Positions 1-13,933 of a stretch of 28,798 bases of DNA are shown here, one piece after another (the stretch's first letter is position 1; every line of letters starts with the position of its first letter). Below the pieces are notes generated by a model. That model was not told where the DNA came from and ran no database searches. It was given only the letters and a program-made list of their open reading frames with translations. A program made the position numbers and the translations under genes. The DNA comes from a virus: the IMG/VR virus record IMGVR_UViG_3300009182_000243, positions 1-28,798 of that record. One strand, 5' to 3'.

Positions 1-249
1 GCAAATGGTAGATCTACAGGATCTCTTTCACGCACTGGTACAACTAACACAGGAGGTGGCGGTGGTGGTGATGTTTGTCACAACGTTCGCACATCATATA
101 CACATGGAGCTTCTGGTGGTTCTGGTATCGTTATTCTATCTATTCCAACAGCAAATTATACTGGAACAACTACTGGCTCACCAACAGTAACTACAGTTGG
201 TACTAATAAAATATTAACATTCACAGCATCTGGTTCTTATACGGCTTAA
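1..249 (+). CDS. Glycine-rich tail fibre/adhesin, C-terminal end (partial)
   Basis: The frame is open from base 1 to a TAA at 247-249, so this is the last 82 codons of a gene that begins outside the window. The peptide has a run of six glycines near residues 18-23, then a GASGGSGIVILSI stretch and a Thr/Gly-rich tail that ends GSYTA. The pattern 'SGGSGIVIL..' closing a glycine-rich block is also seen at the end of the gene at 921-3137 (GGGGSGIFMLRY) and twice in the gene at 9531-11624 (GGGGSGVIIV, GGGGSGIIII). I therefore read it as the glycine-rich receptor-facing tip of another fibre in the same cassette. Its N-terminal architecture is unknown. The next gene starts 9 bases after the stop. 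Confidence 0.75.
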   Translation, partial: ANGRSTGSLSRTGTTNTGGGGGGDVCHNVRTSYTHGASGGSGIVILSIPTANYTGTTTGSPTVTTVGTNKILTFTASGSYTA

Positions 250-258
250 AGGTAAACA

Positions 259-921
259 ATGACACAGATTCAACAATTAGGTTTTCTTGCTAACAACTTA
301 ACTGTAAATACAGCAGCTAACACAGCCACGTTTACAAATATTCTTGTTGTTGGTAATAGCTCTGTTAACGTTGTTGTTAACTCATCATCTGTTTATGTTA
401 GTGGCGTTGCTCTTGGTAGTGGTGGTGGAACAAACGCTGCTGCTCAATACGCTTGGACTAATACGCAATCGTTTTCTAATACAATTACATTTACTGGTGC
501 AATTTTAGCAAATACTGTTAACGCTGCATCTTATACAGTTGGCACAAGTTTTATTGCCAATGCTACTCAGCTAACAACAACATATCCAACAGTTCACACA
601 GCTAACGTTTCAGTCAATGGAGCCATTATTGCCAACGGTGGTGCTGGTTCTTCTGGTCAGGTACTAACGTCATCAGCTGGCGGTAACGTATACTGGGCAG
701 CTGCAGCGGCTGGCGTTAATACCGCAGCTTCATATGCATTCTCTAATACAACAGCATCTGGTAACAACTCAACAGGCGCAATTACAATCGTTGGTGGTCT
801 TGGTGTTAACGGTAACATATATACAGCCAGCCGAGTTGGGTTTGCCAATACATCAAACGTTAGCGTTGTATATACATATTACAATCAATCAGTTGGTGGC
901 TTAGATACGGTGTTTGGTTAA
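259..921 (+). CDS. Short tail fibre / fibre-attachment protein
   Basis: A 220-residue Asn/Thr/Ser/Val-rich protein of beta character, typical of phage fibre shafts. It opens MTQIQQLGFLANNL, close to the starts at 6289 ([14 protein letters not shown]) and 9531 (MAYNQQLSVLGQV), which suggests a shared virion-attachment segment. Residues about 31-55 ([16 protein letters not shown]) and 114-146 ([30 protein letters not shown]) recur almost unchanged in the 6289 gene. The C-terminus reads YTYYNQSVGGLDTVFG, which I recognise as a common fibre ending. The start has an AGGTAA element 5 bases upstream. Its stop TAA shares one base with the ATG of the next gene (TAATG), so the two are probably translationally coupled and act in one fibre. 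Exact position in the virion is inferred. Confidence 0.72.
   Translation: MTQIQQLGFLANNLTVNTAANTATFTNILVVGNSSVNVVVNSSSVYVSGVALGSGGGTNAAAQYAWTNTQSFSNTITFTGAILANTVNAASYTVGTSFIANATQLTTTYPTVHTANVSVNGAIIANGGAGSSGQVLTSSAGGNVYWAAAAAGVNTAASYAFSNTTASGNNSTGAITIVGGLGVNGNIYTASRVGFANTSNVSVVYTYYNQSVGGLDTVFG
349..696 (+). repeat. Fibre module copy 1 (shared with 6457-6675)
   Basis: Bases 349-374 are identical to 6457-6482, and bases 601-696 align without gaps to 6580-6675 (20 identical bases at 601-620, then scattered third-position changes). Both copies encode [13 protein letters not shown] and [31 protein letters not shown]. The material between these two blocks is longer in this copy. Confidence 0.8.
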
Positions 922-3137
922 TGCCTACAGCTAGATTATTATCCAACGGTGATTTCTATACTAGCGGTGGAGCTATGGATGAGATCACCATACCAAGAAG
1001 TAAGTATGCTGTTCAGTTTAATGGTAGTAATTATTTAAGTTTAGCTTCTAGTAGTTCTCTAGCGTTTGGTACAGGCGATTATACAGTTGAATGTTGGGTA
1101 TATTTAACTGGAGTTCAAAATAATTCTTATGCAACAATATATGGTGCGACTACAACGGGTGGGTTTATATTAGGTTTTAGAGGCACAACACCTACAAGTA
1201 TTTCTATCAATCCGTACGGAGTTGGCGATACAGCTACTGCTAGTTTTAGTTTTTCTTTAACTACATGGTATCATATTGCAGTTACAAGATTATCAGGTAG
1301 CACTAAAATATTTATAAATGGAACGCAATATGGCACAACCGCAACTGATAATACGAATTACGCACAAACAGTAATGAATGTTGGTGGTATATCAACTCAA
1401 TACTTTACAGGTAATATATCCAATGTTCGTATCCTAAAAGGCACAGCATTATACACAACAAACTTCCTACCTCCAGCAGCACCATTAAACGCTATCACGA
1501 ACACATCATTACTTACCTGCCAATCATCTACAATTATTGACAACTCAACCAATGCATTCGTTATAACTAATAATGGTTCTGCAACAGTGCAATCATCTGT
1601 ATTACCAACGCATACTGCCAATCGTTATTTGACTGATGCTACGTTACAGGCGTCATTGTTTGATGAGGTATCAATAACAAATAACAAGTATGGTGTAAGT
1701 TTTAATGGAAGCTCTCAGTATTTGACAACAACATCTAATGCGGCATTAGGATTTGGTACTGGTGATTTTACTATTGAAGCTTGGGTATATGTTACAAATT
1801 TAACTGCAACTAATACAATTAATGATGCGAGAACTGGGAACACTGCTTCTGCTTATGTTTTTGCTGTTTTTAGTTCTGGTGCATTGAATTTTTATGATGG
1901 TCCAAACAATACAGATAGAACATCTTCAACAGGCTTGATTAGTTTAAATACTTGGTATCATGTAGCAGCAACAAGATCTGGTACTACATTGAGATTATTT
2001 GTTAACGGTGTAGTAGTATCAACTTTCACTGGTATCTCTTCTGATTATGGATCTACTCAACCAAGTTTGATAGGTAGACAACAGAGTGGTTCTGGTTATT
2101 TTTATGGAAATATCTCAAACCTTCGTGTCCTCAAAGGCACAGCATTATACACAACAGACTTTACGCCAACAGCACCACTAAACCCAATCACTAATACAGT
2201 TCTCCTTACCTGTCAATCAGCAACAATTGTTGATAACTCTACAAATGCTTTCACTATAACTAATACTGGTTCCGCTACTACAGCGTCAGCTGCTCTTACA
2301 TACGCATCAAAACGAATATTGAACGATGGAAGTATGGTTGTCTCTGGTGTATATGATGAGATTACTCAGTTCTTTCCAACTGCGGTTGAATATCTAGCAG
2401 TTGCTGGAGGAGGTTCTGGTGGCGGTTATGGATCTCCGTGGGATACAGGTGGTGGTGGTGCTGGTGGTTTACTTAACAGCACATTTGCTGTAGCTGCTGG
2501 TGTTACATATACCATTACTATTGGCGCTGGAGCAGCTGGTGGTGCTGGTAATAACACCAACGGTACTCAGGGAACTAATACCACTATTGTTGGTACAGGC
2601 GTATCGATAACATTATACGGCGGCGGTGGTGGCGCTTTGTGGTCTCCAGCTGGTAACGGTGGTTCTGGTGGTGGTGTTTCACAACAAGCTGGTTATGGTG
2701 TTCCTGGTAAGGGTGTGTATCCAGGTTCAGCATATGTAGATGCACCAAGACAGGGTTATGATGGAGCTCCTGGCGGTGGTATTATTGGATCAACTGGCGG
2801 CTATGGTGGCGGCGGCGGTGGTTCTACTGGTTCTCCAGCAAATGGTGATAGAAACGGTGGACCTGGAACAACAACATCGTTTAGTGGCACGTCAACAACT
2901 TATGCAGCTGGTGGTTATGGTGGTAACAGTGCAACAGCTGGTGTGAACACAGGTACTGGTGGCGGCGGTGGATATAATGGAGGTGGTGCTGGCGGTGGAG
3001 GTGGATCAGGTATCTTTATGCTTCGTTATGCTGACAACCTTCCAAACATCACCAACACAACAGGTTCACCAACACTAACTGTTTCTGGCGGGTATAAAAT
3101 ATATAAGTGGACAAGCTCAGGCAGTTTTTCATTCTAA
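921..3137 (+). CDS. Adhesin with two LamG-like domains and a glycine-rich tip
   Basis: A 738-residue protein. Two LamG/concanavalin-like beta-sandwich domains can be read at about residues 29-190 and 257-420. Each carries the marks FNGS..YLS, FGTGD(Y/F)T(V/I)E.WV, TWYH(I/V)A and NISN(V/L)R(I/V)LKGTALYTT. Each is followed by a conserved LLTCQS.TI.DNSTNAF.ITN extension. Residues 490-738 are glycine-rich with few charged residues, resembling the polyglycine lattice of phage receptor-binding tips such as T4-like gp38 of S16. A linker (RLLSNG.., RYLTDA.., RILNDG..) followed by a DE(I/V) motif recurs at residues 5, 235 and 465, an exact 230-residue period. The start overlaps the upstream stop (TAATG). 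LamG folds in phage fibres commonly bind surface sugars; the ligand here is unknown. Confidence 0.82.
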   Translation: MPTARLLSNGDFYTSGGAMDEITIPRSKYAVQFNGSNYLSLASSSSLAFGTGDYTVECWVYLTGVQNNSYATIYGATTTGGFILGFRGTTPTSISINPYGVGDTATASFSFSLTTWYHIAVTRLSGSTKIFINGTQYGTTATDNTNYAQTVMNVGGISTQYFTGNISNVRILKGTALYTTNFLPPAAPLNAITNTSLLTCQSSTIIDNSTNAFVITNNGSATVQSSVLPTHTANRYLTDATLQASLFDEVSITNNKYGVSFNGSSQYLTTTSNAALGFGTGDFTIEAWVYVTNLTATNTINDARTGNTASAYVFAVFSSGALNFYDGPNNTDRTSSTGLISLNTWYHVAATRSGTTLRLFVNGVVVSTFTGISSDYGSTQPSLIGRQQSGSGYFYGNISNLRVLKGTALYTTDFTPTAPLNPITNTVLLTCQSATIVDNSTNAFTITNTGSATTASAALTYASKRILNDGSMVVSGVYDEITQFFPTAVEYLAVAGGGSGGGYGSPWDTGGGGAGGLLNSTFAVAAGVTYTITIGAGAAGGAGNNTNGTQGTNTTIVGTGVSITLYGGGGGALWSPAGNGGSGGGVSQQAGYGVPGKGVYPGSAYVDAPRQGYDGAPGGGIIGSTGGYGGGGGGSTGSPANGDRNGGPGTTTSFSGTSTTYAAGGYGGNSATAGVNTGTGGGGGYNGGGAGGGGGSGIFMLRYADNLPNITNTTGSPTLTVSGGYKIYKWTSSGSFSF

Positions 3138-3143
3138 TAAATA
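3135..3143 (+). promoter_or_regulatory. T4-type late promoter box overlapping a stop codon
   Basis: TAATAAATA differs by one base from the T4 late -10 consensus TATAAATA over its last eight bases. Its first three bases are the stop codon of the 921-3137 gene. It stands 24 bases before the ATG of the next fibre gene, a suitable distance for a short leader. T4 late promoters need only this box plus the gp55/gp33/gp45 machinery, which is not in this window. Confidence 0.5.
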
Positions 3144-3167
3144 ATTGAAAGCAATAGGTAGACCAAT

Positions 3168-5969
3168 ATGGCAAAACTTCAAGATGGCACAAGAATATAT
3201 GGAACAGCTAACGTTGATACTGCTCTCAACGTAAACACATATTTCACTGCCAACGCAACGCAAGTAAAAATTGCTACACCATTATCAGCAAACGGTTCGA
3301 CTGGCACGGCTGGTCAGATACTTGTTTCTGGTGGAGCTAACAATGCCTATTGGGGATCAACCACACCATTATATAACTATAGCGCACAGTTTAATGGTAG
3401 TAGTTATCTAACAACGGCTGCAAGTTCTTCTCTAGGTTTTGGTACTGGCGATTTTACTATTGAATTTTGGATGAATAGTACATCGACAACTAATTGTAGA
3501 ATTATGGGTAATGGAGCTGGTGGTCCTTGGGCTGCTAATAGATGGGTTATTTCATTTAATGATGTAGCAACTGGAAAAATTGGTTTTGCAACAAATAATA
3601 CTTCTTCAACAATAGTTAGTACAACCGCTACAAATTTAAATAATGGATCTTGGCATCACGTTGCAATTGTTAAAAGTAGTAATACATATACAATTTATGT
3701 AGATGGAACTTCTAGTGGTTCAGCAACAAGTGCAACTTCAGTTGATGGTGGCGGTTCTTTTCCGTTTTCAATTGGGTTTTCTAACCTAAGTGGAGATACC
3801 GTTTATACAGGTTATTTAAGTAATGCTCGTGTTATCAAAGGGCTTGCAGTATATACAGGTAACTTTACTGTTCCAACTTCTCCACTATCAGTATCACAAA
3901 GCTCTGGTACAAATATTGCTGCTGTATCATCATCACAGGTTAGCTTACTTACTTGTAACGCATTGACACTAACTGATGCATCTCCAAATGCACTTGCTAT
4001 TACAAATACTGGACCAGTAGTAGCATCAGCAACCACATACCCAACTTCATTTCCTCAATCAGCTGTATACGTTCCAACAACTGCATTAACAGCAATAAGA
4101 CAACAGTTCACTGGCGATGGTTCAACAACACAGTTTAACATATCTGGTGGTTATACACCAAACACAATATCAGTATTCGTTAACGGTGTTCTTGCCCGTA
4201 ATGGTTCAGATGTTACTGTTACTTCTGGTTCGTTCATAACATTCACTGGTATCACACCACCAAACGGTTCATTGATTGATGTTACTGGAACTGTGCCAAC
4301 GAGCTATAGTGCGATTACACCTGTTAGTTATAGTACACAGTTTAATGGCAGTAGTCAATATTTGTCATTAGCTTCTAATGCTGCATTTGCTTTTGGTACT
4401 GGCGATTTTACTATTGAATGTTGGGTTAATTCTTCAAATTGGAAAACATCTACTGCAGCGCCAATATTTATTTCTGCTGTAACAGGTGGAATGTTTTTTG
4501 GAACAAATGGTACTAATTTTGTTGTTAGAGCTTATTCCGTAGCAGACCAATTAGCGACTGCTACCTTACCAACTCTCAATATTTGGACTCACGTTGCTGC
4601 TGTTAGAATTGGAACAACGTTATCATTATATTACAATGGTGTATTAATTACCTCAACTACTAATAGCTATAATTTTCTACAGGGCGCTACTTATATTGGT
4701 AATGATGCTGCATCGGCTTACTATCAAGGTTACATTTCTAACCTTCGCATAACTAAAGGTGTTGGTGTATATACAGGCAATTTTACAGTACCACAATCAC
4801 CACTTCAAGCGACACAAATATACGGTGGTCCAACTATTCAGGCAATTACTGGCACACAAACCAGCTTACTTACTTGCAATGCACCAACAATCATCGATGG
4901 TTCAACTAATGCATTTACAATAACAAACAACGGTGCAGCAACAGTATCAACATCAATAGTTCCAACATTCACCAATATCGTAATGAATAGCACCAGTGCT
5001 GATGCGTATAATTCATCAACTGGCAATCTTGGTATGCTGTTTGATAATACTAACAATAGACAAATGTTTACCGCATATGGTTTTCAGTTTAAAAACGAAG
5101 GCGGTATCATTACACCAACTAATAAAACTAAAGTATCGTTCTACAATGAAGCTGCAAATACATGGACAGTGCCAACTGGTGTAACAAGAATATTTGTTAA
5201 GATGTGGGGTGCTGGTGGTGGTGGAGGTTCGTATGGTGGTTGGAGACAAGGCGCACAGGCAGGTGGCGGTGGATTTACTCATGCGTTGTTTAATGTGGTT
5301 CCAGGAGAAATTGTACAAATACGTCCTGGTGGCAGAGGTACTGATAGACCAGGTGCTGGAACTGCATATCCAGATGGTGGTGGTGCTTCGACTGGTGGCG
5401 GCGATAATCAATATTGTGCCAACGGCGGCGGTAGTTCAAGTATAAGAATTCCATCAATCAGCGCAAGCGTATATGCATTGTATGCTGGTGGCGGCGGCGG
5501 TGGTGCTGCTTGTAACGGATTTGCTGTTAATAATGGTGGTGCTGGTGGTGGATTAATTGGTCAACCTGGAGGTAGATCAGGTAACTATACAACCACACAA
5601 TATGGATTAGGTGGAACTCAATCTGCTGGTGGTGCTGCTGGTACTGGTTCTAATACAACAGGTGGTGCTGGTAGCGCAGGTCAGGGTGGTACGCATCAAA
5701 ATACAAACTGCTATGGTGGTGGTGGAGGTGGTGGTTATTATGGTGGTGGTTCTGGCTGTTACGGTGGTAGTAATAGTATGGGCGGTGGCGGAGGTGGTAG
5801 CGGTTTTATTCATAGCTCTGCTTTGTTTGGCGCTACATACGCTGGTAATTATAGAACCCCAGCAAATAGTCAAGACTCAGATTTACAAGTAGATAATGTA
5901 TTGCAGTATGGTTATGGTGGTGACGAATCAGCACAAGGTGGTCCTGGCGTCGTTGTATTTTATTACTAA
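3168..5969 (+). CDS. Tail fibre with two LamG-like domains and a glycine-rich tip
   Basis: A 933-residue protein in five visible parts. A short N-terminus (MAKLQDGTRIYGTANVDTAL) leads to an ANGSTGTAGQILVSGG..AYW linker at about residues 41-62. LamG-like domain 1 spans about 72-240 ([42 protein letters not shown]). A module at about 308-376 has the [10 protein letters not shown] and [12 protein letters not shown] motifs. LamG-like domain 2 spans about 387-545 (FNGSSQYLSL, FGTGDFTIECWV, YISNLRITKG). A glycine-rich C-terminal domain runs from about 665 to 933 and begins WTVPTGVTRIFVKMWGAGGGGG, with scattered Cys and Tyr. Each LamG is trailed by the LLTCN...ITN extension. The middle module and the LamG design are shared with the 6289 gene. 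It is likely a receptor-binding fibre; the receptor is unknown. A 100-residue accessory gene follows 9 bases later. Confidence 0.82.
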   Translation: MAKLQDGTRIYGTANVDTALNVNTYFTANATQVKIATPLSANGSTGTAGQILVSGGANNAYWGSTTPLYNYSAQFNGSSYLTTAASSSLGFGTGDFTIEFWMNSTSTTNCRIMGNGAGGPWAANRWVISFNDVATGKIGFATNNTSSTIVSTTATNLNNGSWHHVAIVKSSNTYTIYVDGTSSGSATSATSVDGGGSFPFSIGFSNLSGDTVYTGYLSNARVIKGLAVYTGNFTVPTSPLSVSQSSGTNIAAVSSSQVSLLTCNALTLTDASPNALAITNTGPVVASATTYPTSFPQSAVYVPTTALTAIRQQFTGDGSTTQFNISGGYTPNTISVFVNGVLARNGSDVTVTSGSFITFTGITPPNGSLIDVTGTVPTSYSAITPVSYSTQFNGSSQYLSLASNAAFAFGTGDFTIECWVNSSNWKTSTAAPIFISAVTGGMFFGTNGTNFVVRAYSVADQLATATLPTLNIWTHVAAVRIGTTLSLYYNGVLITSTTNSYNFLQGATYIGNDAASAYYQGYISNLRITKGVGVYTGNFTVPQSPLQATQIYGGPTIQAITGTQTSLLTCNAPTIIDGSTNAFTITNNGAATVSTSIVPTFTNIVMNSTSADAYNSSTGNLGMLFDNTNNRQMFTAYGFQFKNEGGIITPTNKTKVSFYNEAANTWTVPTGVTRIFVKMWGAGGGGGSYGGWRQGAQAGGGGFTHALFNVVPGEIVQIRPGGRGTDRPGAGTAYPDGGGASTGGGDNQYCANGGGSSSIRIPSISASVYALYAGGGGGGAACNGFAVNNGGAGGGLIGQPGGRSGNYTTTQYGLGGTQSAGGAAGTGSNTTGGAGSAGQGGTHQNTNCYGGGGGGGYYGGGSGCYGGSNSMGGGGGGSGFIHSSALFGATYAGNYRTPANSQDSDLQVDNVLQYGYGGDESAQGGPGVVVFYY
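4089..4343 (+). repeat. FTGDGST/VFVNGVL inter-LamG module, copy 1
   Basis: Encodes an about 85-residue block ([52 protein letters not shown]) between the two LamG-like domains of the 3168 gene. The stretch ending at 4343 shares a run of more than 20 identical bases with the copy at 7519-7770. Confidence 0.75.
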
Positions 5970-5978
5970 GAGGGCAAT

Positions 5979-6281
5979 ATGAATATATTAGGAGCAATTA
6001 TGTTTATGATGCCTCAAGCCAAATGGCATTTTGAGGGTGGTGTCGAATACGAGAACATCGTATGGGACGATGCATTTTATCCAAAGCCAAGTTACAAACA
6101 ATTAAAAGATGCATATGAACTCAGTCAAAAAACATATGCATCTGAAACTGATTATAGATTAGTAAGAAAAGATCACTATCCAACTGCCGAAGAACAACTA
6201 GCAATTATATTTGATGTTGGTATTGATGGTTGGAAAGAATATATACAGAATGTAAAGAACACATTTCCAAAGCCAGAATAG
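5979..6281 (+). CDS. Small fibre-associated / tail-fibre-assembly-like protein
   Basis: A 100-residue protein with a GAGGG Shine-Dalgarno 5 bases before the ATG. It begins MNILGAIMFMMPQAKWHFEGG, which resembles the 'AIMxxxPxA' start of small XkdW-like phage tail proteins. It ends with YPTAEEQLAIIFDVGIDGWKEYIQNVKNTFPKP, in which the YPT.EEQL.....GIDGWK.....VK..FPK pattern is widespread in small proteins next to phage fibre genes. No signal peptide or membrane segment is seen. It sits between two large fibre genes with gaps of 9 and 7 bases. That position suits a fibre folding or attachment factor, but the role is inferred from context and motif memory only. Confidence 0.6.
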   Translation: MNILGAIMFMMPQAKWHFEGGVEYENIVWDDAFYPKPSYKQLKDAYELSQKTYASETDYRLVRKDHYPTAEEQLAIIFDVGIDGWKEYIQNVKNTFPKPE

Positions 6282-6288
6282 GTAAGTA

Positions 6289-9200
6289 ATGTCACAAAAT
6301 CAACAGTTATTTCTACTTGCAAATATAGTGTCTGTTAATACAACAGCTAACACTTTAACATTCACAAGTAACTCAAATATATCTACTTCATTCAATGTTG
6401 GCGGTTATGGTAATACTACAACTGGTGGATTTGTTGCTAACTCTTCTGTGCTTGCTGTTGGTAATAGCTCTGTTAACGTTGTGGTTAATTCTTCTGCTGT
6501 ATATGTGGGTGGAGCTCCTCTCGGAGGCGCAATTAATACAGCTGCACAATTTACTTTTACTAATACTCATATTTATACCGCTAACGTTTCAGTCAATGGT
6601 GCCATCATTGCTAATGGTGGTGCTGGTACTTCTGGTCAAGTACTAACATCATCGGCTGGTGGTAATGTTTATTGGTCAACAGCAGCTGGTGGTTTTTCTA
6701 ACGGTGCATCAATATCAGTTGCTAACCTTGCTATTACTGGTTCACTCACTGCTAACGGATCAGTTGGTACATCTGGACAAGCATTAGTATCAACTGGTAC
6801 TGGTGTACAGTGGGGTGCATTGTCACCTGGATATAATTATAGTTCGCAGTTTAATGGAAGTAGTTATTTAACTAACCTTTCAAATAGCACAACTTTACAA
6901 ATGGGTTCTGGTGATTTTACTGTTGAATTTTGGATGTATTCACCATCAATAGCTGCTCAAGTAATATTTGATGGTAGACCAGCTGGCGCAGGTCAATCTA
7001 GTAATGGAGCTTTGCAAATATCCCTTCAAGCTAATGGATCAATTACTGTATATGGAATATTAAATGCACAAAATAATTTAGTTACAAGTTCTGCTGGAAC
7101 TATAGTTGCTAATCAATGGTATCATATCGCATTAGTTAGAAGCGGAAGTAGCACTGGTAATGTTAAATTATATATCAACGGCGTATTAGCTTCTACATAT
7201 GGTTCAGCTGATACAACAAATTACAATCAAGGCTATGTTAATATTGGTTGTAGGTTTGATGGCGCTGTAATATATGCTGGGTTTATTTCTAATTGGAGAA
7301 TGGTAAAAGGAACAGCTGTTTATACTTCAGCATTTACACCACCAACATCTCCATTATCTGCAATATCTGGTACATCATTACTTGTTTGTAATGCTATTAC
7401 ACCAACATCAGATTCTTCAACAAACGTTTTTGCACTAACAAATACTGGTCCTGTTACCACAACAGCCACTCTATCCCCATTCACATCAACAACAGTATCA
7501 ATACCAACAGCATCACTAACAGCTGTCAGACAACAGTTTACTGGTGATGGATCAACAACAACATTTGCTGTTGCTGGTGGATATACTGCTAATGCTATTT
7601 CTGTATTTGTTAACGGTGTATTACTTCGCAATGGTACTGATGTAACAGTAACGAACGGTTCAACTGTAGTGTTTGCTATTGCTCCTTTGAGTGGAGCATT
7701 GATTGATGTTATTGGAACTGTACCAACAACTTATAGTTCGATCACGCCTGTTAGTTATAGTACACAGTTTACTACTGCTAGTTCTCAGTATTTGAGTATT
7801 CCAGCAAATGCGGCATTCCAAATGACTGCTGATTTTACTATAGAATTTTTTGCATATATTACAAGTTTTGCAAGCAATCCTGTTATTTTGGATCAGTATG
7901 TTGCTGGAACAACAGGAGCAGGAAATTGGCAAATAGGTTTTATAACTTCAGGAGTTTTACAATTATATTACGATGGTAGTTCATATGTAAATAGTTCAAC
8001 TTTATCCCTTAATACATGGTATCATATTGCGGCTGTTAGAATAGGTTCATCAATAAAAATTTATATTAATGGTGTATTAGCTACAACTCAAACATTTGCT
8101 GGAACATTAGGAAGAAGCGATACTACATTGTGGATTGGCGCTCAACATGCATCTGGTCCAGTAAATTATACGTCTGCTTATATTTCTAATGTTCGTGTTG
8201 TTAAAGGTCTTGCTGTTTACACATCTAACTTCACAGTACCATCAAGTCCACTAGCAATAACACAATCAGCATCTGGTGCCTATATCCAAGCAATCACTGG
8301 CACACAAACATCACTACTCACTTGTAACGGACCAACGATTATTGATGGTTCAACAAACGCATTTACGATAACTAATAATGGTTCTGCACCAGTATCAACT
8401 AGTATTGTGCCTACGTTTACTAATGTGACTATTAATAATAACAACATTATTAACTTTGCTGATGGAACATCGGTTGGAACAGCGCAAAGTCTTAGTCAAA
8501 GAAACAAATTTATCAATGGCGCAATGGCTATTGATCAAAGAAACGGTGGTGCTTCCCAAACAATAACAGCTGCAGCTGCTTTAGCGTATACTGTTGACCG
8601 CTGGTATGCTTATTGTACGGGCGCTAACGTAACTGGTCAACGTGTTGCTGGTTCAACAGCATCATCTCAATATAACTATCAATTTACTGGCGCTGCTTCT
8701 GTTACGGCTATTGGATTTGGTCAAAGAATTGAAGCTCTTAATTGTTATGATCTTGCTGGAACAACAGCAACTCTCAGTGTATTGCTTTCAAACAGTTTAT
8801 TGACAACGGTTACTTGGACAGCTTATTACGCATCAACTGCGGATACATTTGGAACATTAGCATCCCCAACAAGAACACAAATTGCCACTGGAACATTTAC
8901 TATCAATAGTACACTTACTAAGTATTCAACTAACATTGCAATACCAGCTGCTGCCACTACTGGTATTGAAGTAGTGTTCTCAGTTGGTGCTCAAACTTCT
9001 GGTACATGGGTTATTGGTACAGCACAATTAGAAACTGGAGCAGTAGCAACACCGTTTGAACGTAGACTATATGGTACAGAATTAAATCTATGTCAGAGAT
9101 ATTTTGAAAACAGTAATGGAGACGGTACTGCTGCAGCTGCTAGTACAAGTACATACATTTTTACTACAACAGCAACAACAAATTATCCAAGCTGGCCTTT

Positions 9201-9351
9201 CAGAGTTGGAAAAAGAACTTCACCAACAATGACAGTTCTCCCTAATGGTGGAACAGGTGGTGCAGTTTCTCCATCTGTTGGATCGTTTTTTCAATCTTCT
9301 AATCATGGTAACGCTGCTGGGTTTGGTTGGACAGCTAATGCGGAGTTATAA
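6289..9351 (+). CDS. Tail fibre with two LamG-like domains and a non-glycine C-terminal domain
   Basis: A 1020-residue protein, the longest in the cassette. The N-terminus [14 protein letters not shown] and residues about 57-130 match the short fibre at 259-921. A second [13 protein letters not shown] linker follows near 155-170. LamG-like domain 1 is at about 184-360 ([27 protein letters not shown]). The [23 protein letters not shown] module is at about 411-475, and LamG-like domain 2 at about 488-655 ([32 protein letters not shown]). From about 733 to the end there is a different domain, starting [19 protein letters not shown] and containing DRWYAYC and [28 protein letters not shown] recognise this signature from many phage fibre C-termini and take it to be a receptor-binding or trimer-forming domain. 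Unlike its neighbours it has no glycine-rich tip, so it may bind another receptor class. Confidence 0.82.
6457..6675 (+). repeat. Fibre module copy 2 (shared with 349-696)
   Basis: The shorter counterpart in the 6289-9351 fibre gene. The two conserved blocks are brought closer together, as if a segment was gained in copy 1 or lost here. Confidence 0.8.
7519..7770 (+). repeat. FTGDGST/VFVNGVL inter-LamG module, copy 2
   Basis: The equivalent of 4089-4343 in the 6289 fibre gene, one codon shorter. It again stands between two LamG-like domains, so the order LamG - module - LamG is conserved while the tips of the two fibres differ. Confidence 0.75.
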
Positions 9352-9356
9352 TTAAT

Positions 9357-9521
9357 ATGTATAAATTACTTTTTAATCCACTAAATTTAACACCGACTGT
9401 TCTTCGTTTATCAGATGGAGCGTTTATTCCATTTGATGAAGCAAACACAGATTACCAGCAATATCTACTGTGGTTAGCTGAAGGTAATACTCCACTACCA
9501 CCAGATGAACCAACAGCTTAA
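9357..9521 (+). CDS. 54-residue fibre-associated protein
   Basis: A short open frame beginning ATG at 9357, 5 bases after the previous stop, and ending TAA at 9519-9521. The nearest ribosome-binding element is GGAG at 9342-9345, inside the end of the upstream gene, so coupling to it is likely. The protein reads [20 protein letters not shown] followed by [20 protein letters not shown] and [14 protein letters not shown]. The core 'IP.D..N.DYQ.YL.WL.EGNTP' is familiar from small proteins beside phage fibre genes, sometimes labelled tail-fibre assembly related. It fills a gap that would otherwise be empty and stands in the same place, after a fibre gene, as the 100-residue protein at 5979. Function is inferred. 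Confidence 0.72.
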
Positions 9522-9530
9522 GGGTAAGTT

Positions 9531-11624
9531 ATGGCATACAATCAACAATTATCAGTATTAGGTCAAGTTGCCCCAGCTACTACAGGAACAGCTGGTCAGG
9601 TGTTAGTTTCAGCGGGTAGTAGCGCAAGTTCATATTGGGCAGCTACAATACCAGTGAGTGCTTATAGTGCTCAGTTTAATGGTAGCAATTATTTAAGTAC
9701 AACAGCTGTCAGTTTACTTGGTGATTTTACAATCGAATGTTGGACTAGATTTACAGTTTTTTCAGCAGCCACATACGGAAGCGTTATTGTTTCACAAGGC
9801 GCTGCTACAACAATATCACCAAACGTAATGTCATTACAAATTGAAACGAGTGGTGTTTTTCGTTTTTTCTGGTCTGATTTTAATACCCCAGTTTTAACTG
9901 GTCCAACAATGTCACTTAATACTTGGTATCACGTAGCGGTAACTAAAAGTGGTTCTTCTTTTACATTGTGGATAAATGGCGTGTCCTCAGCTACTGGTAC
10001 AAGTTCGGCTACAGTAACAGCAACTAATTTATTTTATGTAGGTTCTTCATGCTATGCACCTGGATTAACAACAAGATCAACAACTGGTTATATTTCAAAT
10101 GTGCGTGTAACAAATGGCGTTGCAATATATACAGGTGCATTTACTCCACCAACAAGCCCATTAGGAACAGCCCAAGCAGCTGGAACTAATATAGCAGCGG
10201 TATCTGGTTCTCAGGTTGTTATATTAACTTGCAACGGTCCAGGATTTACTGACTCATCATCAAATGCATATATATTAACTAATAATGGTAATGTCGTAGC
10301 AACTCAGTACGCTCCATTCTCATCATTCTCCGCAATAGCAAGATCAGCAACACAAACACAAACAATACTAACATCTGGTTCTGGAACATATTATACTCCA
10401 TCAGGTGTTGCTTGGTTGCGTATTCGTATGGTTGGTGGTGGAGGCGGCGGTGGTGGTTCTGGTAGCGGCAGTCCAGGAAATGGCAGTGTTGGTGCTAACA
10501 CAACATTTGGAACATCATTATTAACTGCTGGTGGAGGTGGTGCTGGTGTACCAAATAATGGTCTTCCAGGTATAGGAGGAACTGCATCTATTGGTTCAGG
10601 CGCTACTGGTATAGCACTATCGGGTGGTGGTGGAACTAATGCAGCATATTCATATTATCCAGGTGGTGGTAATGGTGGTACATCACCATTTGGTGGCGGC
10701 GGTGCTGGTGGACAACCAAATGGTGACGCTGGAGTGGTAAAAAATGGTTCTGCTGGAGCTACAAATTCTGGTTCTGGCGGTGGTGGCGGAAATTGGAACC
10801 AAGGTTCAAACGCTGGCGCTGGCTCTGGTGGTGGCGCTAGTGGATATGTTGAAGCATACATATCAAGTCCCGCAGCATCATATGCATATACCGTAGGCGC
10901 TGGAGGTGGCGGTGGATCAGCTGGAACTTCTGGTGGTGCTGGCGGCGGTGGCGGTTCTGGTGTTATTATTGTTGAAGAGAATTATGCTGTTAGTGTCGTC
11001 AAAAAATCAATGTCGCAAACAATACTAACATCTGGTTCTGGAACATATACCACACCAATTGGCGTTGTTCAATTAGAAATTCGTATGGTTGGTGGTGGTG
11101 CTGGTGGTGGAGGTTCGTTTGCTGCCGCTTCTGGTTCTGTTGCAAGTAGTGGTGCCAATACTATTTTTGGTGCAGCACAAGCATATGGTGGTACAGGTGG
11201 ATATAATACATATTACGCTTCTGTAGGTGGTGTTGGCGGTAGTGGCACATTAGGAGGATATAGCGGAATTGTTATTTCTGGCGGTCAAGGTGGTGGTGCT
11301 GGCTCTGCTGTAATTGCTTATACTGGAGGTGGTGTTGGTGGTACATCACCATTTGGCGGCGCTGGTAGTGGTTCGGTAAACGGTAGTGCGTCAGCTGCTG
11401 CCACAAATAGCGGTAGTGGTGGTGGTGGCGGTGGTGGCAATAGTAGCGCATCAACATCTCCTGGTCATGGTGGAGGTTCTGGCGGATATGTCGAAGCATA
11501 CATATCAAGTCCAGCAGCATCTTATGCATATACAGTAGGTGCTGGTGGTGGTGGTGGTTCTGGTGGTGTGTGGCCAGGTGGTGGTGGTGGTTCTGGTATC
11601 ATTATAATTAAAGAATATTATTAA
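9531..11624 (+). CDS. Tail fibre with one LamG-like domain and two tandem glycine-rich tips
   Basis: A 697-residue protein. The N-terminus MAYNQQLSVLGQV resembles the starts at 259 and 6289, followed by a TGTAGQVLVSAG..SYW linker (residues 18-36). One LamG-like domain lies at about 45-205 (SAQFNGSNYLS, GDFTIECWTRF, TWYHVAVTKSG, YISNVRVTNGVAIYT), with the usual ILTCN...ILTNNG extension to about 253. Two glycine-rich domains follow, at about 277-495 and 496-697. Each begins QTILTSGSGTY.TP.GV..L.IRMVGGG and ends GGYVEAYISSPAASYAYTVG..GGGGS..GG..GGGGSG(V/I)II. The second is a tandem copy of the first, still visible at DNA level. The start has AGGGTAAG 4 bases upstream. It is probably a receptor-binding fibre with a doubled tip. 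Confidence 0.8.
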   Translation: MAYNQQLSVLGQVAPATTGTAGQVLVSAGSSASSYWAATIPVSAYSAQFNGSNYLSTTAVSLLGDFTIECWTRFTVFSAATYGSVIVSQGAATTISPNVMSLQIETSGVFRFFWSDFNTPVLTGPTMSLNTWYHVAVTKSGSSFTLWINGVSSATGTSSATVTATNLFYVGSSCYAPGLTTRSTTGYISNVRVTNGVAIYTGAFTPPTSPLGTAQAAGTNIAAVSGSQVVILTCNGPGFTDSSSNAYILTNNGNVVATQYAPFSSFSAIARSATQTQTILTSGSGTYYTPSGVAWLRIRMVGGGGGGGGSGSGSPGNGSVGANTTFGTSLLTAGGGGAGVPNNGLPGIGGTASIGSGATGIALSGGGGTNAAYSYYPGGGNGGTSPFGGGGAGGQPNGDAGVVKNGSAGATNSGSGGGGGNWNQGSNAGAGSGGGASGYVEAYISSPAASYAYTVGAGGGGGSAGTSGGAGGGGGSGVIIVEENYAVSVVKKSMSQTILTSGSGTYTTPIGVVQLEIRMVGGGAGGGGSFAAASGSVASSGANTIFGAAQAYGGTGGYNTYYASVGGVGGSGTLGGYSGIVISGGQGGGAGSAVIAYTGGGVGGTSPFGGAGSGSVNGSASAAATNSGSGGGGGGGNSSASTSPGHGGGSGGYVEAYISSPAASYAYTVGAGGGGGSGGVWPGGGGGSGIIIIKEYY
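10359..11015 (+). repeat. Glycine-rich domain, tandem copy 1
   Basis: Begins with a 33-base stretch identical to that at 11016-11048. Near its end, the 20 bases at 10851-10870 are identical to 11493-11512. The copy length is 657 bases (219 codons). Confidence 0.8.
11016..11624 (+). repeat. Glycine-rich domain, tandem copy 2
   Basis: An in-frame second copy of 10359-11015 that ends with the gene. The glycine-rich middle differs in length and order from copy 1, while the two ends remain nearly identical at DNA level. Confidence 0.8.
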
Positions 11625-11643
11625 CTCAAAGGAGAACTAAACA

Positions 11644-12024
11644 ATGGGACATTTTGCAAAAGTAGTAGACGGAAAAGTATCACAGGTGATTGTTGCGGAA
11701 CCAGACTTCTTCGACACATTTGTTGATTCATCTCCTGGTCAGTGGATTCAAACCTCATATAATACAAGAGGTAATGTTCACTATGCACCAAACTCAAATG
11801 AGCCAGATGGTGGTGAAGCATTACGTGGCAACTATGCTGGTATTGGATACACATATGATAATATCAATGATGTGTTCTATGCACCTCGTCCATATGATAG
11901 CTGGACTTTGTCGCATGATACATGGACTTGGGAAGCACCAGTACCTTATCCAACTGATGGTCATATATATGTTTGGGAAGAAGCAACTACATCTTGGCAA
12001 GAAGTTGAGATACCATCTTTATAA
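11644..12024 (+). CDS. Conserved small phage structural-region protein
   Basis: A 126-residue, Trp/Tyr-rich acidic protein with a good AAAGGAGA Shine-Dalgarno about 9 bases before the ATG. It begins MGHFAKVVDGKVSQVIVAEPDFFDTF and contains GQWIQTSYNTRGNVHY, RGNYAGIGYTYD...D.FYAPRPY.SW and PVPYPTDGHIYVWEEATTSW. I recognise this family as very common beside fibre genes of T4-like marine phages ('AKV..G.V..VIVA', 'QTSYNT', 'RKNYAGIGYTYD'), where it is usually hypothetical or a structural protein. No catalytic motif is visible. It lies between the doubled-tip fibre gene and the S74 fibre gene. Confidence 0.72.
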   Translation: MGHFAKVVDGKVSQVIVAEPDFFDTFVDSSPGQWIQTSYNTRGNVHYAPNSNEPDGGEALRGNYAGIGYTYDNINDVFYAPRPYDSWTLSHDTWTWEAPVPYPTDGHIYVWEEATTSWQEVEIPSL

Positions 12025-12027
12025 ATA
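12020..12027 (+). promoter_or_regulatory. T4-type late promoter box (TATAAATA)
   Basis: This is an exact match to the T4 late -10 consensus, 32 bases before the ATG of the S74 fibre gene. The TAA stop of the upstream gene (12022-12024) is embedded in it. A Shine-Dalgarno-like AAGGGGA follows in the leader at 12041-12047. Confidence 0.65.
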
Positions 12028-12059
12028 GAATAAAACCAATAAGGGGATAGTGAACCAAA

Positions 12060-13124
12060 ATGGCAGATAACAGTTTTGTAGTAAAGAATACATTAGTAGT
12101 TAACAATAGTTTTACTGTTAACAGTACATCTTTTGTTTACACAGCCAATGCTTTAAGTATCGGAACATCTGCGTACTATGTTACTAACGGTAACATAGGT
12201 TTAGGTAATAGCTCTCCTGATCACAAATTAAGCGTTAATGGAAACACATACCTTAATGGCACAGTAAACGCCATTGGTAATGTTTCCATTGGCGGCATTA
12301 CTTCTATTAATGCTAATGTGGTTATGAACTCTACTGCTGGTATTTCCGCCAATGGTTCTTATGGATCCCAAGGTCAGGCGCTTATATCAAACGGTTCTTC
12401 TGTTTACTGGGCAACCGCAACAGCCGGAACAAACACTCAAATTCAATTTAATGATTCTAGCACTGCTAATGCCTCTGCAGGATTCATATTTAATAAAACA
12501 ACAAACAATGTTACAATAGCCAACAGCCTCAGTTTAGGGAATAACCTAACATTATCAAATAGTGTTATTATAGGCAGTATGGTAATCAATAATACTGGTG
12601 TGTCTCAAAATACATTTGGTATTGGAACAGCCGCATATTTTGTTTCTAATGGTAATTTTGGTATTGGAACATCAAGTCCAGCATACAAACTAGATGTGGC
12701 TGGTACTATTAATTCTCGTGGAGATATATTTGTTACAAAAGGATCTTCACCATATATCGGACCAATCGATAATTATAATATACGTTTTGGTACAGGTGGT
12801 GTTGATCGTGCTACTATTGACACTAGTGGTAACTTTACTGCAACTGGTGATATAACAGCGTTTTCTGATTCCAGATTAAAAACAGATGTTAAGACAATAA
12901 CAAACGCTTTAGAAAAAGTATCAAAAATGCGTGGTGTTATGTTTACAAGAAAAGATACTGGGTCTAAAGGTACCGGTGTTATAGCTCAAGAAATGTTAGA
13001 AATATTACCAGAGGTTGTTCATGAAGGAGATAATCTATCAGTAGCATATGGAAATATTGTTGGTATTCTAATTGAAGCTATTAAAGAGTTAAAAATAAAA
13101 GTTAAAGAGTTAGAAAACAAATGA
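12060..13124 (+). CDS. Tail fibre with C-terminal peptidase S74 (endosialidase-type) chaperone
   Basis: A 354-residue protein. The N-terminal two thirds are beta-rich and repetitive, with NGNIGLGNSSPDHKLSVNG and NGNFGIGTSSPAYKLDVAG as paired copies and an ANGSYGSQGQALISNGSSVYW linker. The C-terminal 86 residues are a clear intramolecular chaperone: SDSRLKTDVKTI at 269-280, then LRG-type MRGVMFTRKDTG, GTGVIAQEMLEILPEVV, LSVAYGNIVGILIEAIKELK and a closing coiled-coil segment. In this family the domain trimerises the fibre and then cuts itself off at the Ser of the SDxRLK motif, here Ser269; the Ser and a Lys act as the dyad. The mature fibre would thus be about 268 residues. Its stop overlaps the next start (ATGA), pairing it with the glycine-rich tip gene. 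Confidence 0.9.
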   Translation: MADNSFVVKNTLVVNNSFTVNSTSFVYTANALSIGTSAYYVTNGNIGLGNSSPDHKLSVNGNTYLNGTVNAIGNVSIGGITSINANVVMNSTAGISANGSYGSQGQALISNGSSVYWATATAGTNTQIQFNDSSTANASAGFIFNKTTNNVTIANSLSLGNNLTLSNSVIIGSMVINNTGVSQNTFGIGTAAYFVSNGNFGIGTSSPAYKLDVAGTINSRGDIFVTKGSSPYIGPIDNYNIRFGTGGVDRATIDTSGNFTATGDITAFSDSRLKTDVKTITNALEKVSKMRGVMFTRKDTGSKGTGVIAQEMLEILPEVVHEGDNLSVAYGNIVGILIEAIKELKIKVKELENK

Positions 13125-13933
13125 CTTTACCATCATCTGGTTCAATAAGTTTCAGTCAAATAAACTTAGAACTTGGTAGATCTTCAAATGCAAGGTTTAC
13201 CCTTAATGACGCAGAAGGAAGAAAATTAGCTTCTACTGGAGGAACTGGTCAGAATTTATCTTCTGGCACCCAAACTAAAACATCAAATTATCGTGGTCAT
13301 GCAAAATTAAATGTTACTTTTGGTTCGACCACAACGAATATTGATACTGGAAATTATCTTACTAATTATTCTGCTGGAAAAACTTGGTCGACATACACAA
13401 TCAATAACGGTGTGGTAATCGGATCTTCTTCATCTGGCAGTTATGCTATGACTATTACTGGTAATTCCGGTGATATTACTGAATTGTATAATAATGGAAC
13501 AATTATCGGAGCTGGTGGAGCTGGTGCAGGTCGAAATGGAGGAGGTGGCGGAGCTGGCGGTAATGCATTATTAGTTAATACTTCAACAACTGTATATAAC
13601 AATGGCGCTTTATGGGGTGGAGGCGGAGGCGGCGGTGGTGGTAATGATGGTGGCGATGGTTCACCAAAACCAGCATTTAATCCTGGTGGAGGCGGAGGCG
13701 GCGGCGCTGGGTATGTTGGAGGTTCTGGATATAATGGCGGTACTCTTACTGTTGGTGGTAATGGCGAATGGCGTGGAGGAACTGCAGGTAACGGCGGCAG
13801 CGGTGGTGATCCAGGCAATGCAGGTGGTGGAAGTAATAATGGTGGCGGCGGCGGTGCGCCAGGTTATTATGTTGTAGGTGGTGGTAATGTTATTTGGGCA
13901 GCTACTGGTGACCGAAGAGGTTATTCTGGTTAA
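13121..13933 (+). CDS. Glycine-rich fibre-tip adhesin
   Basis: A 270-residue protein. The N-terminus MTLPSSGSISFSQINLELGR followed by SSNARFTLNDAEGRKLA is a signature I know from glycine-rich tip proteins of many tailed phages. Residues about 62-126 are a small beta-rich region, and about 128-270 are dominated by runs of up to nine glycines. The end GGGNVIWAATGDRRGYSG is also typical. It overlaps the S74 fibre stop by four bases (ATGA), so the pair is translated together. By analogy with gp37/gp38 of T-even phages such as S16, where gp38 is a polyglycine-sandwich adhesin at the fibre tip, this protein probably caps the S74 fibre. That role is inference; the sequence itself shows only the composition and coupling. 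Confidence 0.75.
   Translation: MTLPSSGSISFSQINLELGRSSNARFTLNDAEGRKLASTGGTGQNLSSGTQTKTSNYRGHAKLNVTFGSTTTNIDTGNYLTNYSAGKTWSTYTINNGVVIGSSSSGSYAMTITGNSGDITELYNNGTIIGAGGAGAGRNGGGGGAGGNALLVNTSTTVYNNGALWGGGGGGGGGNDGGDGSPKPAFNPGGGGGGGAGYVGGSGYNGGTLTVGGNGEWRGGTAGNGGSGGDPGNAGGGSNNGGGGGAPGYYVVGGGNVIWAATGDRRGYSG

What the first reader, a model, noticed from the sequence alone, without database searches (positions are those of the whole stretch)
349..6675. DNA-level shared tracts between distant fibre genes, likely recombination points
Blocks 349-374/6457-6482 (26 identical bases) and 601-696/6580-6675 (96 bases aligned without gaps), plus 4089-4343/7519-7770, link three separate fibre genes. Conservation at base level, beyond the protein need, points to recent gene conversion or duplication and would allow tip swapping by recombination in the same reading frame.
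Basis: partly seen in the sequence, partly recalled or inferred. Interest (0 to 1): 0.5.

Follow-up and report, generated by a model that had tools for sequence, protein, structure and literature searches.

The report
Swappable lectin-like cassettes in phage fibres
An uncultured relative of phage T4 carries several fibre genes in which nearly identical connecting DNA segments flank lectin-like domains that have been replaced, a mosaic pattern that probably lets the phage change what it sticks to by recombination.

Summary
The tracts exist. 348-374/6456-6482 is 27 identical bases; 601-696/6580-6675 matches at 84 of 96; 4089-4343/7519-7770 is only about 70-75% identical. The gA/gE tracts keep more synonymous identity than codon usage predicts (28 of 40 codons, shuffled mean 17.5), but are no younger than the gA divergence between two phages, so "recent gene conversion" is not supported. 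The gC/gE block is close to saturation.

In-frame swapping at shared DNA is better supported elsewhere. Against phage X (IMG/VR 3300043409_001462), three gE connectors are 91-98% identical in DNA (161 of 183 synonymous codons kept, 79 expected), neck genes 64-73%. LamG (laminin-G/pentraxin-fold) cores between conserved connectors are 36-39% identical in protein, synonymous sites near random, in-register partners ranking 66th, 30th and 16th of 185. gB does not show this. A T4-like phage (L066) repeats it between two of its own genes, with background-level cores at all six LamG positions. X joins a gA-like upstream to a gE-like downstream at the 601-696 tract.

Best reading: adhesion genes whose LamG cassettes and tips are exchanged in frame through conserved connectors, extending known T-even adhesin swapping. 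Receptors and recombination in action are untested.

The parts
259..921 (+). gA, 220-aa short fibre-like protein; no Pfam or PHROG match at E 0.01
   Evidence: same-order counterpart in phage X, 79.7% over the first 79 aa
921..3137 (+). gB, 738 aa, two LamG domains (about 1020-1436, 1704-2132) and a glycine-rich tip
   Evidence: (PF13385, PF21722)
3168..5969 (+). gC, 933 aa, two LamG domains (about 3393-3836, 4344-4754) and a glycine-rich tip
   Evidence: (PF13385, PF12810)
6289..9351 (+). gE, 1020 aa, shaft, two LamG domains, connectors, tail-fibre tip
   Evidence: (phrog_4492 over residues 700-1019)
9531..11624 (+). gF, 697 aa, one LamG domain (about 9678-10112) and glycine-rich stretches
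6763..6852 (+). gE connector into LamG1: 97.8% DNA identity to phage X, 27 of 29 synonymous codons; ends sharply at the LamG core
6853..7305 (+). gE LamG1 core, replaced relative to phage X
7426..7740 (+). gE connector between LamG1 and LamG2 (weak match to PF03906, below its cut-off): 91.7% DNA identity to phage X, 86 of 97 synonymous codons
7780..8202 (+). gE LamG2 core, replaced relative to phage X; modelled as a LamG/pentraxin fold
8257..8436 (+). gE exit connector: 91.1% DNA identity to phage X, 48 of 57 synonymous codons
8455..9348 (+). gE tip, not shared with the X counterpart (glycine-rich tip there) but 67% identical over 274 aa to the tip of a fibre with another shaft in L159
9531..9687 (+). 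gF start and connector into LamG, 93% DNA identity to phage X over 157 bases
219..293 (+). 75 bases identical to phage X, across the end of the preceding fibre gene and the start of gA

Best explanation
Bases 1-13933 are the fibre (host-adhesion) locus of a T4-superfamily phage of an unknown bacterium. The long fibre genes are strings of modules: an N-terminal anchor/shaft, connector segments, one or two LamG (lectin-like) domains, and a tip. New LamG cores and tips enter by homologous recombination between related phages in one cell, and sometimes between fibre genes of one phage. The conserved connectors act as homology arms that keep the reading frame. INFERRED: that homologous recombination did it, that LamG cores and tips bind host surface sugars, and that the exchange changes host range. 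The gA/gE tracts themselves are an older shared shaft module, not a recent conversion.
For: T4 superfamily: PHROG matches to portal, sheath, tube, head protease, major head protein and terminase. Three connectors of gE against X keep 161 of 183 synonymous codons (79.2 expected); three neck genes keep 260 of 486 (227.9 expected); P=6e-18. These connectors were chosen after seeing the profile; fixed 45-residue flanks at the three in-register LamG positions of gE and gF give 101 of 114 upstream (48.0 expected) and 73 of 116 downstream (51.8 expected), cores 72 of 143 (63.7 expected), flanks against cores P=7e-7. In-register partners of these cores rank 66, 30 and 16 of 185. Sharp 5' breakpoints. 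L066, all aligned codons outside against inside the six LamG cores: 467 of 663 (278.8 expected) against 116 of 271 (113.7 expected), P=5e-15; partner ranks 25, 121, 11, 84, 82, 150 of 185. Converse: of 13 pairs with cores above the background 99th percentile, 5 have both flanks within background, e.g. L054 9347/L045 15345, core 0.73, flanks 0.58 and 0.62. gA/gE-type junction in X. Tip on another shaft. No reverse transcriptase in 4 of 4 records searched. RecA-family gene in X and L071. LamG fold.
Against: The third shared LamG gene, gB, does not show it: gB LamG1 against its X counterpart has flanks near expectation (6 of 15 upstream, 7.6 expected; 18 of 33 downstream, 15.0 expected), so it is uninformative or was exchanged longer ago. 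No recombinant was seen in a population: the near-identical contigs (L092/L173 from 9554, L172 from 13644) are 99.99-100% identical to the window over the parts held. Only one close fibre-locus relative (X) was found. L071 shows high connectors at single places, but flanks against cores overall is not significant (228 of 404 against 66 of 131, P=0.23). In L066 one of the 12 flanks is at background level, and L066 has no RecA-family match (its record may be incomplete). The crossover in the X junction cannot be placed, because informative codons in the tract match gA and gE alternately. On the exit side similarity fades gradually, so part of it is protein conservation.
Confidence: 0.74

Rival explanations
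1. Recent gene conversion between gA, gC and gE inside this phage homogenised the tracts.
For: gA/gE blocks keep 28 of 40 codons, shuffled mean 17.5, P=0.0002; longest exact match 27 bases, P=0.004; a local excess in gC/gE beside the LamG2 entry (19 of 28, 12.8 expected).
Against: gA/gE is no closer than gA against X (30 of 49 versus 32 of 48, P=0.67). The gC/gE block is near saturation (62 of 115, P=0.11), and the gE connector is much closer to X (87.5% over 456 bases) than to gC (68.6% over 487 bases).
Confidence: 0.12
2. No exchange: purifying selection keeps the connectors and diversifying selection changes the LamG cores by point mutation.
For: Connectors are protein-conserved in the comparisons made; LamG cores are at a likely host-contact position (inference).
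Against: Synonymous sites differ as well: conserved in connectors, near random in cores. The same connector type between gC and gE is near saturation, so its DNA is not constrained in itself. Twelve in-register core partners in three comparisons have ranks not distinguishable from uniform (median 74 of 185, P=0.36, small sample).
Confidence: 0.06
3. A targeted mutator or switch (diversity-generating retroelement or invertible segment) produces the variation.
For: Variation is confined to defined parts of fibre genes.
Against: No reverse transcriptase in the window, X, L066 or L071 (0 of 4). The longest inverted repeat found in the window is 38 bases at 71%. Whole domains with insertions and deletions differ, not scattered adenines.
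Confidence: 0.03
4. The whole fibre locus moved between the lineages of this phage and X as one block; only later were LamG cores and tips replaced. (Compatible with the main reading, which it extends.)
For: Not only connectors but the gF start, gG (81% aa, 76 of 95 codons, 49.0 expected) and the g0/gA junction are closer than neck genes.
Against: Core replacement is still needed. gB and gH are poorly conserved between the two phages.
Confidence: 0.5

Closest known systems
[quoted passage not shown] 1998; seen only as a title in reference lists; its content otherwise recalled)
   Same: Variable specificity parts flanked by conserved segments in a T4-superfamily fibre locus; modular shuffling (passage in PMC3797505).
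   Different: There the conserved parts are glycine-rich motifs between hypervariable segments of gp38 (passage in PMC12529663). Here they are shaft and connector segments flanking whole internal LamG domains, in more than one gene.
Conserved DNA motifs around receptor-binding domains of tailspikes in six lytic phage genera (PMC10408124, passages)
   Same: Short conserved DNA motifs up- and downstream of an exchanged binding domain, proposed as recombination hotspots.
   Different: Three motifs of 20-95 bp around one receptor-binding domain there. Here connectors recur along multi-LamG fibres, and synonymous sites were tested against codon usage and neck genes.
Kuttervirus tail spike genes recombining within one phage (PMC11414711, passages)
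   Same: Several adhesin genes sharing conserved N-terminal parts; recombination between two of them observed in the laboratory.
   Different: Tail spikes with branching domains, one of them an engineered addition; shown experimentally, which is missing here.
Flexible genes and metagenomic islands in cryoconite phages (PMC7468147, passages)
   Same: Conserved surroundings with exchanged host-recognition genes in environmental phages.
   Different: Gene variants tracked by reads there; here domain-level exchange inside genes, without read data.

Membership tests
T4-superfamily myovirus | T4-type portal, sheath, tube, terminase, head protease and major head protein | tested here: met
   the portal matches 2496 phage records, best place of each below 60% identity
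LamG / concanavalin A-like domain (PF13385) | score above the curated cut-off and the LamG beta-sandwich fold | tested here: met
   7 matches in the window over the cut-off; AlphaFold2 model with pLDDT about 90 over the LamG part, PDB neighbours include a putative carbohydrate-binding protein, PAPP-A, pentraxins, neurexin LNS and laminin LG
T-even gp38-type adhesin swapping | variable adhesin parts replaced between conserved DNA segments | tested here: met
   for gE and gF and for L066; not seen for gB
T-even gp38-type adhesin swapping | the conserved recombination points are the glycine-rich motifs of a gp38 protein | tested here: not met
It works like gp38 swapping but is not filed as a gp38 member
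T-even gp38-type adhesin swapping | exchange changes the bacterial receptor | not testable with these tools
   no isolate, host or binding data
Diversity-generating retroelement | reverse transcriptase near template and variable repeats | tested here: not met
   no PF00078 match in the window, X, L066 or L071; all four records may be fragments
Invertible fibre-tip cassette (shufflon-like) | inverted repeats flanking alternative tips | tested here: not met
   10 inverted pairs of 20-38 bases, at most 85% complementary

The most novel reading that the evidence does not exclude
Some uncultured T4-like phages keep a dedicated cassette system: fibre genes are arrays of LamG sockets (six per gene in L066) whose connectors are maintained as near-identical DNA homology arms, so that LamG cassettes from a shared pool can be exchanged in frame, position by position, combinatorially across several genes.
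Probability: 0.3. Interest if true: 0.65.

Novelty: new variant of a known kind. Interest (0 to 1): 0.45.

Why it matters
A synonymous-site test shows that internal lectin-like domains of phage fibres, not only tips, have been replaced while connector DNA stayed nearly identical. It points to exact junctions (just before the LamG core) where long reads from the source metagenomes could directly measure how often host-binding modules are exchanged in nature.

Tried and rejected
Recent gene conversion among gA, gC and gE: rejected as the general explanation. Selection on protein alone: rejected by synonymous sites. Retroelement or inversion: no support.

A DNA signal at the LamG entry was examined. 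CAGTTTAATGG occurs 5 times in the window (0.03 expected by shuffling), all five at LamG entries. At 6 of the 7 window entries (the seventh did not fit the pattern used) codons agree more than expected (93 of 131 same-residue pairs, 63.7 expected), while the exit motif at 5 sites does not (89 of 181, 83.1 expected). Over 125 entry sites from all loci it is not universal (only 12 carry the Q residue, 9 of 12 CAG against 3.0 expected), and control positions reach similar z-scores. It is kept as a lead only; pairs are not independent.

Placing the crossover inside the 601-696 tract failed. A DNA search of phage genomes with window 1-8000 gave one short hit. A degenerate search for block 1 in viral contigs found only phage X (records very near the window may be left out). 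The protein motif of block 2 (GQVL..S...YW) is common: 32 distinct matches to a loose pattern in the loci then held, so at protein level the tract is ordinary.

Row handling: LamG domains, 238 HMM hits, 228 near full length, 186 distinct, 183 with 120 bases on both sides. Pairs with similar flanks (at least 20 shared 9-mers on one side): 27, of which 20 had core identity below 0.70 and 7 above; they were selected on flanks and several share a phage. Pairs with at least 25 shared 9-mers in the core: 28; 13 above the background 99th percentile; of these 5 with both flanks within background. L066 and L071 were picked from the 27-pair list because they showed the pattern.

Full report
WHAT IS THERE. 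The window is a 28.8 kb virus record of unstated source. From 14731 on it carries T4-type neck, terminase, sheath, tube, portal, protease and head genes; the portal is below 60% identity at the best place of each of the 2496 phage records it matches. Bases 1-13933 are a cluster of fibre genes: the end of one fibre gene (1-249), gA, gB, gC, small gD, gE, gF, gG, gH (S74 chaperone end) and gI. gB, gC, gE and gF hold seven LamG domains.

They are real, with corrections. Block 1 is 27 identical bases. Block 2 matches at 84 of 96 bases with 31 of 32 residues equal. Block 3 needs gaps and is about 70-75% identical. The gA/gE blocks keep 28 codons of 40 same residues against 17.5 in synonymous shuffles (P=0.0002). 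They were picked for identity, and wider stretches give 30 of 49 against 20.5 (P=0.005). The gC/gE connector and exit keep 62 of 115 against 53.5 expected (P=0.11; connector alone 40 of 67, P=0.05), so there protein conservation is nearly enough. At protein level block 2 is a common fibre motif.

RECENT OR OLD? Phage X (IMGVR_UViG_3300043409_001462, loci L008 and L044) has the fibre genes in the same order, with one gene where this window has gC, gD and gE. gA against its counterpart in X keeps 32 of 48 synonymous codons, not different from gA against gE (30 of 49, P=0.67). The shared gA/gE module is thus about as old as the split of the two gA genes; a recent conversion is not needed.

WHERE EXCHANGE IS VISIBLE. 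Three connectors of gE, chosen after seeing the profile, keep 161 of 183 synonymous codons with X (79.2 expected), while three neck genes keep 260 of 486 (227.9 expected); P=6e-18. Ten exact matches of 41-75 bases lie in connectors, around gene boundaries, at the start of the gF tip and in gG. Between connectors, the LamG cores at the three in-register positions of gE and gF are 36-39% identical in protein (30-39% with another alignment), keep 72 of 143 codons (63.7 expected), and their partners rank only 66, 30 and 16 among 185 LamG domains. Fixed 45-residue flanks there keep 174 of 230 (flanks against cores P=7e-7). gB does not show this: its flanks against X are near expectation (6 of 15 and 18 of 33 for LamG1). 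The 5' edge is sharp, just before the core; the 3' edge fades through a protein-conserved exit motif. A structure model of gE 395-725 (mean pLDDT 78.8, pTM 0.72) has pLDDT around 90 over the LamG part and its exit; PDB neighbours include a putative carbohydrate-binding protein, PAPP-A, neurexin LNS, pentraxin and laminin LG domains.

INDEPENDENT CASES. In L066 (3300027659_000015, with a T4-type portal) two neighbouring genes hold six LamG domains each. Outside the cores they keep 467 of 663 codons (278.8 expected), inside 116 of 271 (113.7 expected), P=5e-15; partner ranks are 25, 121, 11, 84, 82 and 150 of 185. At all six positions core DNA identity is 0.59-0.67 (background median 0.61, 99th percentile 0.67); both 120-base flanks exceed the background 99th percentile at five positions and one flank at the sixth. 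L071 is weaker and not significant overall (P=0.23). Both were picked because they stood out. Conversely, 5 of 13 pairs with similar cores have both flanks within background: for example L054/L045 (core 0.73, flanks 0.58 and 0.62) and the window's gC LamG2 with L045 14640 (core 0.69, flanks 0.56 and 0.66).

The X counterpart of gE resembles gA upstream of block 2 (25 of 27 residues; gE 5 of 27) and gE downstream (90% of 59 residues; gA 26% of 39). This is the arrangement that a crossover at the tract would give. The exact crossover cannot be placed, and direction is unknown. The gE tip is 67% identical over 274 residues to the tip of a fibre in L159 that has a different shaft without a LamG hit, while X has a glycine-rich tip on its gE shaft.

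MECHANISM. Homologous recombination between connectors is the simplest route; X and L071 carry a RecA-family gene (L066 no match; the window itself not searched for it). No reverse transcriptase was found in 4 of 4 records. That LamG domains and tips bind host sugars is inferred from the fold and from what is known of phage fibres.

LITERATURE. Motif-guided adhesin exchange is established: T-even adhesins (Tetart 1998, title in reference lists; modular shuffling in a passage of PMC3797505), tailspike motifs (PMC10408124, passages), kuttervirus tail spikes (PMC11414711, passages), environmental phages (PMC7468147, passages). Searches for LamG or concanavalin A-like domains in phage fibres, some with modularity or recombination (2, 3, 1, 6 and 2 papers listed), showed no title or abstract start that describes LamG cassette exchange; the held library lacks most subscription journals, so this is weak evidence of novelty.

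Noticed in passing
9531-11624: gF carries internal repeats of its glycine-rich part (160 bases at 79%, 101 bases at 79%), a partial duplication inside one gene.
   Followed up: no
1410-1585 and 2106-2278: The exits of the two LamG domains of gB are 80% identical over 176 bases, closer than the gC/gE matches listed there (68.6-74.7%), so tandem duplication within gB looks younger.
   Followed up: partly
9554 and 13644: Two near-identical contigs (IMG/VR 3300010885_019190 and 3300028393_000299) have an end at these points inside the fibre cluster, as if strain variation had broken the assemblies there.
   Followed up: partly
19259-21853: The tail sheath protein is 864 aa against a 496-position family profile, so it carries a large insertion.
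   Followed up: no
L050: 21 distinct LamG domains within 24 kb of one phage contig, an unusually large array.
   Followed up: no
1014-1024, 3387-3397, 4338-4348, 6847-6857, 9672-9682: Five LamG entry sites share the word CAGTTTAATGG, more than codon usage predicts; not universal in other phages.
   Followed up: partly
L008:13392-16658: PF07953 scores just above its cut-off (24.0 against 23.8 bits) on a LamG domain; this most likely reflects a shared fold, nothing suggests a toxin.
   Followed up: no
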